From positions 1 to 64,000 of IMG/VR virus record IMGVR_UViG_3300033146_002139: DNA of 64,000 nucleotides; one strand, 5' to 3'. Made by a program: the position numbers and the translations under genes. The DNA comes from a virus. The notes below the pieces were generated by a model, which had not been told where the DNA came from, ran no database searches, and was given only the letters and a program-made list of their open reading frames with translations. Shown here piece after piece: positions 19,139-57,904 of the stretch (its first letter is position 1; every line of letters begins with the position of its first letter).

Positions 19139-19363
19139 TTAATGTTTAAATATTTGTTTAATTTCAGTATCTCCAACTATTAGTTCTCTACCCTTAAAGC
19201 AAGGTTCTTTAATAGCTTTTGATAGCCTCAGTGAAGACATAAGTAGCTTAATTCGGTGTCCAAGCCCCTTCATACCTTGATAAGTAAAGTTTACTTTCTC
19301 TACATATAAAGCGCTAAATTCAACACCTTGTACATTGACCTTACATATTCTCTGTGTAGACAT
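19139..19363 (-). CDS. small basic protein under a structured leader
   Basis: 74 residues, basic, starting STQRICKVNVQGVEFSALYV. Its SD (GGAG) and the first base of its ATG lie inside a perfect 13-bp hairpin (19363-19409) in the message, so translation is probably controlled by the upstream RNA structure. Function unknown. Confidence 0.66.
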   Translation of the reverse strand: MSTQRICKVNVQGVEFSALYVEKVNFTYQGMKGLGHRIKLLMSSLRLSKAIKEPCFKGRELIVGDTEIKQIFKH

Positions 19364-19515
19364 AAGTCTGCTCCGAATTCCCTTTATAAAATTATCCGGA
19401 GCAGACTTAGGGGTTGGAAGTCCACTCCAGTGTGTTCGCCCAAATCACTGAACACAATAGCAACCAAGTAAGGATACGAACCTCATAGCTCCAAATTCAG
19501 CTCTTGGTCGTTGGT
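19363..19515 (-). ncRNA. structured leader: tRNA-elbow-like fold plus SD-masking hairpin
   Basis: Read leftward from 19515: stem GACCAAG/CTTGGTT encloses AGCT-GAATTTGG-AGCT (D-arm-like) and TGAGG-TTCGTAT-CCTTA (T-arm-like) with no anticodon arm. Next comes hairpin TGTGTTC/GAACACA (7 bp). Last comes a perfect 13-bp hairpin (19397-19409 with 19363-19375) that contains the SD GGAG and touches the ATG. The layout is an aptamer-like domain followed by a translational switch. The class is not one I recognise. Confidence 0.6.
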
Positions 19516-54809: not shown

Positions 54810-55217
54810 ATGGCCGAATATAATGCAAAACTAGGAAGTCAAACAACTTCTCATGTTGAGATTTTACAGAGCTTAGGAAACTTTCCATATTTACAGCAAA
54901 ACTTTGAAGGACCCGAAACTGCTGGTGTAGCAGATGTTCTTGTTCTAGCAATTGGAGATGCTTTAAAAATGGTTGCAGGAAAAATAGAAAGATATCAAGA
55001 TGGTGATACTGAAGACATCTTTGCTGTTGCTGCTGAGTCTTATGATTCTACAGTGTTAAACACTACTGGAGCACCTGCTGGACACATTGATACATATGCT
55101 TTTGGTTGTCTAAAAAAAGATTCAATTTTTAAGTTAGACGGACCTGGAACTGGTAGAGAGCTTCTGTCAAGTACTGATTTAATCAAAGCAAAGAAAATGG
55201 GACTTTATCTTTTATAA
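54810..55217 (+). CDS. capsid decoration protein
   Basis: 135 residues, SD AAAGGAG. Ala/Gly/Asp-rich beta protein with ADVLVLAIGDALKMVAG and a central DIFAVAAESYDS. Size, composition and position immediately before a gpE-type capsid fit gpD-like decoration/stabilisation proteins. Confidence 0.75.
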   Translation: MAEYNAKLGSQTTSHVEILQSLGNFPYLQQNFEGPETAGVADVLVLAIGDALKMVAGKIERYQDGDTEDIFAVAAESYDSTVLNTTGAPAGHIDTYAFGCLKKDSIFKLDGPGTGRELLSSTDLIKAKKMGLYLL

Positions 55218-55283: not shown

Positions 55284-56294
55284 ATGGCTTTACAAATTGA
55301 CTTAGATAGATATTTTACTGCAGAGGCAATTGGGCAAGTTCTATATGACGCAGAGCCTGTTAGAACTCCAATATGGAGCAGAGTGTTTAGTAAGACTAAA
55401 CAACATCCACTTCCTCACATAAGTAAAAAAACTTTTGTTGAAACTACTGGTAATATTCCGGTAATAAAAAGAGGTTCGAGCTCTATTGGTGTTTATGACG
55501 GTGAAGATACTGTTGATTTATTTGACCCACAACCTTTAGCAGTTAATACTATTATAAAAGCAAGTGACTTTTTAAACCTTCAAATGGTTGGTGATGAATC
55601 AACTCTTCAAGATTGGGTAGCTGATAAGCTTTCAATGTTAAGAGACAGAATCTTTACTACTATTGAAGCTTTATGTATCCAAGCTTTTGTTGATGGTGAG
55701 ATTAACTATGCTATCAAGATTTACGAAGGAGACCTTGGTGATTACAAAGTTAACTTTGGTAATTTAATTCCAGTTCCTGTAGCATTTACAGGTGTTTGGG
55801 GTGGTGCTACGATTGAAAACATTTTCAAGGACATTTTAGTCTTGAAAAATGCAATCAAGAAGCATACTAGATATGGTTCTACTATTGGTATCTTAGCAGG
55901 TGAAACAGCTTTCTATACTTTAGTAGGAAAAGCTGAAGGAATGATGACTTCGACTACAGTTAATATGAGAATTGAAGAAGACACTGTTCTTATCAATGGT
56001 ACTAAAATAGAGTATATGGGCGATGCTGGATATACTGATTTAAAAACTGGTGCTTGGGTTGATGCTATTGGAACTAATGATATAGTTCTTTTTGCAGAAG
56101 ACGCTCCGTTCCAATTAAACTATCTAGCAATTGATGACTTTGATGCTATTACAGGTGGTCCTCAAGTTGTTGCTAGAAGCTTCTTCCCTAAGTCAATCAG
56201 GCAAGATGACCCTAGTGGATACAAGATTCTAGTACAATCGAAACCATTTCCTATGAGTGTTCCTTTGGCTACCCTGAAGGTAACTGTAATTTAG
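55284..56294 (+). CDS. major capsid protein, gpE-like
   Basis: 336 residues, SD AAGGAG. The phage_cap_E layout is visible: DLDRYFTAEAIGQVLYDAEP...RTPIWSRVF, VIKRGSSSIGV, DRIFTTIEALCIQAFVDGE, and a C-terminal QVVARSFFPKSIR. HK97-fold shell protein; strongly translated by its leader. Confidence 0.88.
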   Translation: MALQIDLDRYFTAEAIGQVLYDAEPVRTPIWSRVFSKTKQHPLPHISKKTFVETTGNIPVIKRGSSSIGVYDGEDTVDLFDPQPLAVNTIIKASDFLNLQMVGDESTLQDWVADKLSMLRDRIFTTIEALCIQAFVDGEINYAIKIYEGDLGDYKVNFGNLIPVPVAFTGVWGGATIENIFKDILVLKNAIKKHTRYGSTIGILAGETAFYTLVGKAEGMMTSTTVNMRIEEDTVLINGTKIEYMGDAGYTDLKTGAWVDAIGTNDIVLFAEDAPFQLNYLAIDDFDAITGGPQVVARSFFPKSIRQDDPSGYKILVQSKPFPMSVPLATLKVTVI

Positions 56295-56314: not shown

Positions 56315-56343
56315 TTGACATTTATTAAACAAATCCCTATATT
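56315..56343 (+). promoter_or_regulatory. promoter inside the homing-endonuclease leader
   Basis: TTGACA, 17-bp spacer, TATATT. The -10 hexamer is the first half of the left arm of the hairpin at 56334-56385, so RNA started here lacks that arm. Confidence 0.7.
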
Positions 56344-56385
56344 GTTGTTAGTGTGAAATTACTCGCATTGACAACAATATAAGGA
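56334..56385 (+). promoter_or_regulatory. RBS-masking hairpin
   Basis: TATATTGTTGT (56338-56348) pairs with ACAACAATATA (56371-56381), 11 bp. After a single mismatch TCC (334-336) pairs with GGA (383-385) of the SD AAGGAG. In read-through RNA the SD would be blocked. Confidence 0.65.
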
Positions 56386-56393
56386 GATTTAAA

Positions 56394-57500
56394 ATGACAG
56401 AACAATGGAAAAGTATTAAAGGATTCGAGAACTACGAAATAAGCAACGCAGGTAATGCAAGAAAAAAAGAAGAAACACTAATAAGAAGTGATGGAAAGCC
56501 ATACACATTCGAGTTAAAGGTTTTAAAGCAAGAATTACTAGGAAATGGACTCTTGCGAATTGTTCTTAAAAATAGCCATAAAGTTAAAAAGCGAATTAAA
56601 GTACATATTTTAGTTGCTGAATACTTTGTTGATAAGAATGACAACGATAATATCATAAGTCATGTTGACGGAAACTTACAAAATAATAATGCATCAAACT
56701 TAAAGTGGAGCCATAGAAGTGTTAGGCAGAAAAAAATACTTAAACCTTTAAGCGATAAAAAAGATGATGCTAAAAACGGTATTTTTTGGAAAGCTGTAAA
56801 AAACTTTGAGGGGTTTTACGAAGTTAGTAATATGGGTACAATTAGAAGCCTAGATAGAGTTGTTAATGATTTAAGATGGGGGTCTAGTTTTGTAAAGGGA
56901 CAAATTCTTAATCCAGAAAAAACAGCATCGTTAAGTGTTAGATTGTCAAATAACAGTATATCTAAAAAAAGATTTAAAGTACAAGATTTAGTTTGCAATG
57001 CTTTTATCAGAGACATCGAATTTAATGAGTATATATTATTTAAAAACAACAATAGACACGACTGTTCAGTTTTCAATATAGAAATAGAAAAGATAAAAGA
57101 AACAAGAGTAACGAAACATCTTGAACAAGAAAAAATGCTTGAAGGGGAAATATGGAAAACAGTACCTTTTGCACTTAAATATCAAATATCATCGAAAGGA
57201 AGAGTTAGAAGTTCTTTTGGAAGACTAATGTCTTTATCTAACTCTCAGGATTATACAAGTGTATCTGTAATAACAGACGAGAAAAAACACAAAACAATTC
57301 GTGTTCACAGATTAGTAGCAACCACATTTATAGCTAACCCTGAAAATAAGCTTGTAGTTAACCATAAGAATGGGGATAAAAGCGACAATAGAGTAGAAAA
57401 TTTAGAATGGCTAACACAATCAGAAAATGTATTACATGCTCATAATAATAACCTGTATGGCAGAAATAAAAACAATAAAAAAGAAAATAAAGAAAAATAA
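56394..57500 (+). CDS. homing endonuclease with three NUMOD4/HNH units
   Basis: 368 residues. Three repeats each begin W-K-x-(I/V)...Y-x-(I/V)-S-x-x-G-x-x-R: about 4-105, 130-235 and 250-350. Unit 1 has SHVDGNLQNNNASNLKW, unit 3 has NHKNGDKSDNRVENLEW (both HNH_3-type with H-x-x-G-x-x-x-N-N). Unit 2 has FKNNNRHDCSVFNIEI and lacks the catalytic His. Inserted directly behind the capsid gene. Basic and modular, a free-standing mobile element. Confidence 0.85.
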   Translation: MTEQWKSIKGFENYEISNAGNARKKEETLIRSDGKPYTFELKVLKQELLGNGLLRIVLKNSHKVKKRIKVHILVAEYFVDKNDNDNIISHVDGNLQNNNASNLKWSHRSVRQKKILKPLSDKKDDAKNGIFWKAVKNFEGFYEVSNMGTIRSLDRVVNDLRWGSSFVKGQILNPEKTASLSVRLSNNSISKKRFKVQDLVCNAFIRDIEFNEYILFKNNNRHDCSVFNIEIEKIKETRVTKHLEQEKMLEGEIWKTVPFALKYQISSKGRVRSSFGRLMSLSNSQDYTSVSVITDEKKHKTIRVHRLVATTFIANPENKLVVNHKNGDKSDNRVENLEWLTQSENVLHAHNNNLYGRNKNNKKENKEK

Positions 57501-57502
57501 AA

Positions 57503-57904
57503 ATGGCATTATTACTAACAGCAGAAACACTTAGAGAAGAACTAGGTTCTCACAACTATAGAATGCTTACTCAGAACGACGATGAGAATGCGGAAAAAGC
57601 ACTAAGAAAGGCAAAGATATTTGTTGCTTCTGTATTCAAAAGAGCCAACAAAGAATCTGACTACGACGAACTTGATGACAGCACTTCAGAAGCAGTAGTA
57701 TTTAGGGCATTATTTGAACTTTATGTTAAGGTTAAGCAATATGACTACGCAACAAAAGCAAGAAATGAGAGCCAGGCTATTCTCATAAACATATTAGGAG
57801 CTGTGGCAGATATCTATACAGACGATAATATGGTAGGAAACAGTAGAAGTAAAACAACAATTTCCTCTATAAAGGGAAAATCTAAGTGGAACGGATACTC
57901 TTAA
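57503..57904 (+). CDS. head-tail connector-like protein
   Basis: 133 residues. Helical: ENAEKALRKAKIFVASVFKRANKES and VFRALFELYVKVKQYDYATKARNE, the size and composition of DUF1320/gp6-type connectors. Weak SD. Assignment rests mainly on position. Confidence 0.62.
   Translation: MALLLTAETLREELGSHNYRMLTQNDDENAEKALRKAKIFVASVFKRANKESDYDELDDSTSEAVVFRALFELYVKVKQYDYATKARNESQAILINILGAVADIYTDDNMVGNSRSKTTISSIKGKSKWNGYS

What the first reader, a model, noticed from the sequence alone, without database searches (positions are those of the whole stretch)
56315..56393. Promoter embedded in an RBS-masking hairpin before the homing endonuclease
An 11-bp stem (56338-56348 / 56371-56381) extends over a mismatch to pair with GGA of the SD. 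The -10 box TATATT of a TTGACA-17-TATATT promoter is the left arm itself, so RNAs started here (about 56350) lack the left arm and expose the SD. Read-through RNA from the capsid gene would be silent. T4 homing endonucleases are known to use this same logic of early masking and late-promoter release; here it appears independently with a different endonuclease family.
Basis: partly seen in the sequence, partly recalled or inferred. Interest (0 to 1): 0.7.

Follow-up and report, generated by a model that had tools for sequence, protein, structure and literature searches.

The report
Hairpin silencing read-through homing-endonuclease mRNA
In this phage the on-switch of a selfish DNA-cutting gene is built into an RNA hairpin, so the gene should be translated only from its own promoter and stay silent on RNA running in from the capsid gene next door; the same trick is known from phage T4 and recurs here in a minority of unrelated phages.

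Summary
The stem is 19 contiguous base pairs (56338-56356/56363-56381), and further pairs across two bulged A's cover the whole Shine-Dalgarno sequence. It is the most stable of 55,770 60-nt strand-windows in the 167.7-kb phage, and it folds much better on the sense strand because it uses G-U pairs. The promoter is real by comparison: TTGACW-17-TATATT is a recurring motif of this phage, and this copy is a top member. Opening the ribosome site costs 8.3 kcal/mol in read-through RNA and 0.5 in RNA from the predicted start.

The masking/release reading is well supported, though only by sequence. The timing claim is not: the promoter matches the class before replication/recombination genes, not the structural-gene variant, so expression is probably early/middle with late capsid read-through silenced, the reverse of T4. 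"Different family" is overstated: the logic is already described for HNH endonucleases (I-TevIII, Aeh1 MobE).

In a survey of NUMOD4/HNH endonucleases, the same promoter-plus-mask layout occurred in 13/162 against 3/349 neighbouring genes (p = 5e-5); a small hold-out agreed in direction (2/28 vs 0/71, p = 0.08). I file it as a new variant of a known kind.

The parts
55284..56294 (+). Major capsid protein gene (Phage_cap_E, 336 aa), complete; source of the presumed read-through RNA
   Evidence: Pfam PF03864 E=2.6e-30 over 13-334; PHROG major head protein; no terminator-like site between its stop and the HEG
56315..56320 (+). -35 box TTGACA
56338..56343 (+). -10 box TATATT; also part of the left arm of the hairpin
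56350..56350 (+). Predicted transcription start (about 7 nt after the -10 box); inferred, not mapped
   Evidence: Position from the -10 box
56331..56356 (+). Left (anti-SD) arm; lies within the promoter, so mostly absent from RNA started at about 56350
   Evidence: RNAfold; inverted repeat I1
56363..56390 (+). Right arm, containing the SD
   Evidence: RNAfold
56381..56386 (+). Shine-Dalgarno sequence AAGGAG, 7 nt before the ATG
56394..57500 (+). Homing-endonuclease-like gene, 368 aa: three tandem NUMOD4-HNH units (about 56394-56771, 56772-57116, 57117-57500); only the third keeps a full HNH signature
   Evidence: Pfam NUMOD4 (3 stretches) and HNH_3 (2 stretches); PHROGs HNH endonuclease; alignment A1
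57503..57904 (+). Next gene (133 aa, unknown) starting 2 nt after the HEG stop, with no SD but an open A-rich start
   Evidence: opening cost 1.1 kcal/mol

Best explanation
A cis-acting read-through silencer. The endonuclease gene sits in the head operon with its own host-sigma-type promoter. The promoter core also encodes an anti-Shine-Dalgarno arm, with CCC directly before the -10 box and the -10 box itself pairing with AATATA before the SD. RNA entering from the capsid gene carries both arms, folds into a hairpin of more than 24 pairs and hides the SD, so the endonuclease is not made from it. RNA started at about 56350 lacks most of the left arm and is translated. The promoter class suggests early/middle expression, before capsid transcription peaks. 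Shown by sequence: hairpin, sense-strand bias, promoter-motif membership, calculated accessibility switch, recurrence in other endonucleases. Inferred: that the promoter fires, that read-through RNA exists, that it is untranslated, the timing, and the purpose (limiting nuclease dose and keeping the gene under its own control).
For: Strongest local hairpin in the phage, on the sense strand, exactly over the SD. Opening cost of SD-to-start 8.3 kcal/mol in read-through vs 0.5 in own RNA, p = 0.013 with promoter and SD held fixed. Promoter is a member of an enriched phage motif. Of 19 promoter-bearing starts tested in this phage, only this gene and the small ORF before a TnpB gene change by more than 5 kcal/mol. 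In 162 nonredundant NUMOD4/HNH endonucleases, promoter score >= 8 plus ddG >= 4 occurred in 13 vs 3 of 349 neighbours (p = 4.9e-5); with intergenic upstreams only, 11/116 vs 3/251, p = 3.2e-4; hold-out 2/28 vs 0/71, p = 0.078. Method yardstick: T4 gene e gives 15.3 -> 4.0 kcal/mol; I-TevI and segB read-through cost 13.6 and 15.7. The capsid stop lies about 37 nt before the stem base, so terminating ribosomes should not melt it (inference).
Against: No transcript, start-site or translation data. No close relative of this locus was found, so no covariation test. The next gene has no SD and starts 2 nt after the HEG stop; if it depends on coupling, silencing the HEG on late RNA would also starve that gene. 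The survey thresholds were explored (several cut-offs, all p < 0.004) and the hold-out alone is not significant. Most surveyed endonucleases (about 92%) do not show the layout, and this phage's own second NUMOD4/HNH gene (145088) does not. Several positive loci sit within interrupted genes, two with a group I intron upstream, where intron folding may contribute.
Confidence: 0.66

Rival explanations
1. T4-type temporal switch: the embedded promoter is a late promoter, and the hairpin masks the gene on early RNA until late release.
For: Published logic for I-TevI/II/III, SegB and Aeh1 MobE (PMC2988022); the anatomy is the same, with the promoter's -10 region pairing with the SD region, as the T4 sequences also show.
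Against: Promoter matches the class before replication/recombination genes; structural-gene promoters are mostly a different variant. No phage sigma factor found. The upstream gene is capsid, itself expected late, so the RNA to be masked would be late, not early.
Confidence: 0.15
2. DNA-level operator: the inverted repeat is a binding site for a repressor or for the endonuclease itself, as I-TevI represses its own late promoter; the RNA hairpin is incidental.
For: 11-bp perfect dyad overlapping the -10 box; autorepression at such a site is known for I-TevI (PMC2988022).
Against: 8 further pairs include 3 G-U wobbles that exist only in sense RNA; the antisense strand folds 10 kcal/mol worse in the core. 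The helix continues through CC/GG and C/G to cover the SD, which a DNA operator does not need.
Confidence: 0.1
3. RNase III processing site: the long stem is cut in read-through RNA, freeing the SD, so the hairpin activates or times translation instead of silencing it.
For: Stem of about 24 pairs is in the size range of RNase III substrates (general knowledge).
Against: Does not explain why the left arm coincides with a promoter core, here or in the other endonucleases.
Confidence: 0.07
4. The hairpin and promoter pre-date the insertion and belonged to the downstream head gene; the endonuclease landed behind its ribosome site and took it over.
For: The next gene lacks an SD and begins 2 nt after the HEG stop; the HEG's SD resembles those of the capsid and preceding genes.
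Against: No relative with the empty site was found to test it. The layout recurs at other endonucleases in unrelated contexts.
Confidence: 0.12

Closest known systems
RBS-masking hairpins with embedded late promoters at T4-group homing endonucleases (I-TevI, I-TevII, I-TevIII, SegB, Aeh1 MobE) and T4 gene e
   Same: Read-through RNA hides the SD; a promoter inside or after the left arm gives RNA without that arm; found at free-standing and intron-borne endonucleases of the GIY-YIG and HNH families (PMC2988022, PMC3014915; T4 sequences re-folded).
   Different: Here the promoter is host-sigma-like and of the replication-gene class, the silenced RNA would be late capsid RNA, the protein is a triple NUMOD4-HNH, and the phage shows no detected kinship to T4.
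Protection of insertion-sequence transposases from impinging transcription (IS10 and IS50 from general knowledge; IS200 RBS-occluding stem-loop per PMC3196728)
   Same: A mobile gene is kept silent on RNA from outside promoters by a stem whose 5' arm is upstream of the element's own transcript (IS10), or by an RBS-occluding stem-loop (IS200).
   Different: The protected gene is a homing-endonuclease-like gene without transposon ends, and the anti-SD arm is inside the promoter core itself.
NUMOD4 / HNH_3 free-standing homing endonucleases of phages
   Same: Pfam NUMOD4 and HNH_3 domains; inserted between conserved structural genes.
   Different: Three tandem units in one protein, the first two degenerate; own promoter with RBS mask, which most relatives lack.

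Membership tests
T4-type hairpin-regulated homing endonuclease | SD sequestered in RNA that reads through from upstream | tested here: met
   Folding and opening cost, (computed only)
T4-type hairpin-regulated homing endonuclease | Promoter placed so that its RNA lacks the 5' arm | tested here: met
   -10 box is part of the left arm; own RNA cost 0.5 kcal/mol
T4-type hairpin-regulated homing endonuclease | That promoter is a phage late promoter | tested here: not met
   Matches the TTGACW-17-TATATT class of replication-type genes; no sigma gene found. Assignment by motif only
T4-type hairpin-regulated homing endonuclease | Differential translation of the two RNAs shown by experiment | not testable with these tools
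   Needs start-site mapping and reporters
IS-type protection from read-through transcription | Outside RNA masked, own RNA unmasked | tested here: met
   (computed only)
IS-type protection from read-through transcription | Gene is a transposase inside a transposable element | tested here: not met
   NUMOD4/HNH_3 protein
NUMOD4-HNH homing endonuclease | NUMOD4 and HNH_3 domains above the curated cut-offs | tested here: met
   92.6 and 65.8 bits against 23.4 and 24.8
NUMOD4-HNH homing endonuclease | Cuts an allele lacking the gene near its insertion site | not testable with these tools
   No empty-site relative found
Intrinsic terminator | G+C-rich stem followed by a T run | tested here: not met
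   Not among the terminator-like sites in the region
Group I intron carrying an endonuclease | Intron RNA around the gene, host gene split | tested here: not met
   No intron match around the gene; capsid gene complete

The most novel reading that the evidence does not exclude
Anti-Shine-Dalgarno arms built into promoter cores are a repeatedly evolved expression cassette of phage homing endonucleases well beyond T4-like phages, using ordinary host-sigma promoters. They make a mobile gene deaf to whatever operon it lands in, and in this phage they restrict it to early infection, the reverse of T4.
Probability: 0.42. Interest if true: 0.68.

Novelty: new variant of a known kind. Interest (0 to 1): 0.52.

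Why it matters
Mobile endonucleases land in operons they do not control. A promoter whose untranscribed core carries the anti-SD is a compact, portable answer: no protein is needed and the host operon needs no terminator. If the survey signal holds, the T4 solution is a general strategy that evolved many times, and the layout can serve as a sequence signature for predicting which mobile genes are insulated from read-through and when they are made.

Tried and rejected
Relatives of the phage locus by capsid, terminase, HEG or next-gene protein: none close enough for a covariation test. Terminator reading: rejected. Group I intron around the gene: rejected (the weak microRNA-family match to the hairpin, E = 0.018 and far below its gathering score, was discounted). 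RNA thermometer: considered unlikely at -28.9 kcal/mol. General habit of this phage's promoters: rejected, other family members change little. General habit of all its endonucleases: rejected, the copy at 145088 starts inside the upstream gene's end and has no hairpin. First survey with 45 loci and a plain helix count was uninformative (10/45 vs 6/41); the accessibility metric replaced it. A long shuffle run timed out and was repeated with a faster measure. Published reports of MobE and SegB were not in the library, so those cases rest on the reviews. A search for an IS10 source found none, so IS10/IS50 rest on general knowledge.

Full report
WHAT IS THERE. The window is the first 64 kb of a 167.7-kb virus record, G+C 33%. 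A complete major capsid gene (Phage_cap_E, 55284-56294) is followed after 99 nt by a 368-aa gene with NUMOD4 and HNH_3 domains (56394-57500), and 2 nt later by a 133-aa gene of unknown function. The endonuclease-like protein is three tandem NUMOD4-HNH units; only the last keeps the full HNH pattern.

THE HAIRPIN. In RNA the helix runs 19 contiguous pairs, 56338-56356 with 56363-56381, then across a bulged A382 and a bulged A385 to 56331/56390, covering all of AAGGAG. Its folding energy has z = -5.3 against shuffles. Among 55,770 overlapping 60-nt windows on both strands of the phage it is the most stable. The sense strand is favoured (-28.9 vs -21.4 kcal/mol; core -22.5 vs -12.2) because three pairs are G-U, which points to an RNA structure rather than a DNA palindrome. 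It is not a terminator and not part of a group I intron.

THE PROMOTER. TTGACA-17-TATATT could be chance in an AT-rich genome: a loose consensus scan finds as many sites as in shuffles. The exact form is not chance. Ten sites score at least as high in the whole phage, nine noncoding, eight of them identical in both hexamers, against 0-2 expected. Expectation-maximisation on 91 intergenic regions converges on TTGACW-17-TATATT with a nearly fixed 17-nt spacer; shuffled regions give nothing. The family precedes SSB, an HTH regulator, the primase/helicase cluster and the Erf/exonuclease cluster. Genes in the structural regions (head protease, the genes at 54810 and 60889) have TTGATT or TTGAGT and mostly TATTTT. 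The endonuclease promoter is of the first kind. No sigma-factor domain was found in the record. Timing is an inference from these motifs.

THE SWITCH. The ensemble cost of opening the stretch from SD to start codon is 8.3 kcal/mol when the RNA comes from upstream and 0.5 when it starts at 56350. With promoter hexamers and SD fixed, a change this large is rare in shuffles (p = 0.013). On the same measure T4 gene e, a proven case, gives 15.3 to 4.0, and T4 I-TevI and segB read-through RNAs cost 13.6 and 15.7. Within this phage, 18 other promoter-bearing starts change by at most 4.6 kcal/mol, except a small NikA-like ORF before a TnpB gene, where the -35 box pairs with the start codon (9.9 to 0.7); that fold is not unusual against shuffles (z = -0.33).

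COMPARATIVE TEST. No close relative of the locus turned up in the collections searched, so covariation could not be tested. Instead I collected NUMOD4/HNH endonuclease loci from viral and bacterial contigs, removed redundancy, and asked how often a sigma70-like promoter (score >= 8) within 80 nt of the start would release the ribosome site by at least 4 kcal/mol. The answer was 13 of 162 endonucleases and 4 of 402 neighbouring ORFs; with stricter controls 13/162 vs 3/349, p = 4.9e-5, and with intergenic upstream regions only 11/116 vs 3/251, p = 3.2e-4. Promoters alone are also enriched (25/162 vs 31/349, p = 0.022), and within promoter-bearing genes the mask is enriched too (13/25 vs 3/31, p = 0.0006). 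A later set fetched with feature-negative queries gave 2/28 vs 0/71 (p = 0.078). Clear cases with unrelated sequences: L279 (the arm after the -35 box pairs with AGGAGGGGATTATTG, -10 box in the loop, 19.0 to 5.7), L078 (own RNA starts at the right arm, 9.9 to 2.2), L139 (11.3 to 3.1), L109, L093, L371, L034. Several lie between what look like halves of a terminase, tape-measure, polymerase-like or lysin-like gene (judged by eye), two with a group I intron upstream, so intron folding could add to the signal there. About 92% of the endonucleases do not show the layout.

INTERPRETATION. The simplest account is a read-through silencer: the untranscribed core of the gene's own promoter encodes the anti-SD, so only foreign RNA carries the mask. 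This is the T4 endonuclease logic (PMC2988022; PMC3014915) and resembles how IS10 and IS50 (general knowledge) and IS200 (PMC3196728) guard their transposases. Differences from T4: promoter class, the identity of the RNA to be silenced (late capsid RNA), and probable timing.

WEAK POINTS. Nothing here is experimental. Thresholds in the survey were chosen while looking at the data, though the combinations tried gave p below 0.004. The next gene has no SD and may depend on translation of the endonuclease, which would make full silencing on late RNA costly; its start is, however, very open (1.1 kcal/mol), so it may initiate alone.

VERDICT. Observation confirmed, mechanism likely (0.66), timing claim probably reversed, membership in the T4-type late-promoter class not met on one feature. 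New variant of a known kind; interest 0.52.

Noticed in passing
56394-57500: The endonuclease is three tandem NUMOD4-HNH units in one protein, the first two degenerate; relatives examined have one unit.
   Followed up: partly
57503-57525: The gene after the endonuclease lacks an SD and starts 2 nt after the HEG stop, suggesting translational coupling or loss of its original ribosome site to the insertion.
   Followed up: partly
L009 9170-9245 (genome 153170-153245): A TnpB element led by a 42-aa NikA-like ORF uses the same phage promoter, and in read-through RNA the -35 box TTGACAT can pair with the start AUGUCAA (opening cost 9.9 vs 0.7 kcal/mol), though the fold is not unusual by shuffles (z = -0.33). 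A near-copy of the NikA-like ORF precedes another ORF at L009 10844.
   Followed up: partly
L009 4430-5629 (genome 148430-149629): IscB-like gene (RRXRR + HNH) with a 211-nt noncoding gap upstream, plus at least two more TnpB-type transposase genes elsewhere: many RNA-guided-nuclease relatives in one phage.
   Followed up: no
L009 1088-1618 (genome 145088-145618): Second NUMOD4/HNH endonuclease; its start overlaps the end of the upstream gene and it has no hairpin, so one phage uses two different solutions.
   Followed up: yes
window 19351-19410 (minus strand): A 16-bp hairpin covers the GGAG just before a 74-aa ORF (19363-19139) with no recognised family; no matching promoter seen.
   Followed up: partly
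L008 12871-12930 (genome 136871-136930): Second most stable hairpin of the phage, ending just before the AGGAGG of a 153-aa ORF without covering it, like the seg43 hairpin of Aeromonas phage 25 described in PMC2988022.
   Followed up: no
window 23880, L006 87761, L007 113553 (minus-strand promoters; the last two numbers are genome coordinates): TGTCAGCA occurs at or just before the predicted start of three early-type promoters; possible leader or operator element.
   Followed up: no
window 42588 and 42742 (minus strand): Two tandem near-identical repeats with TTGACA-17-TATTTT pointing against the structural genes, upstream of the 845-aa gene.
   Followed up: no
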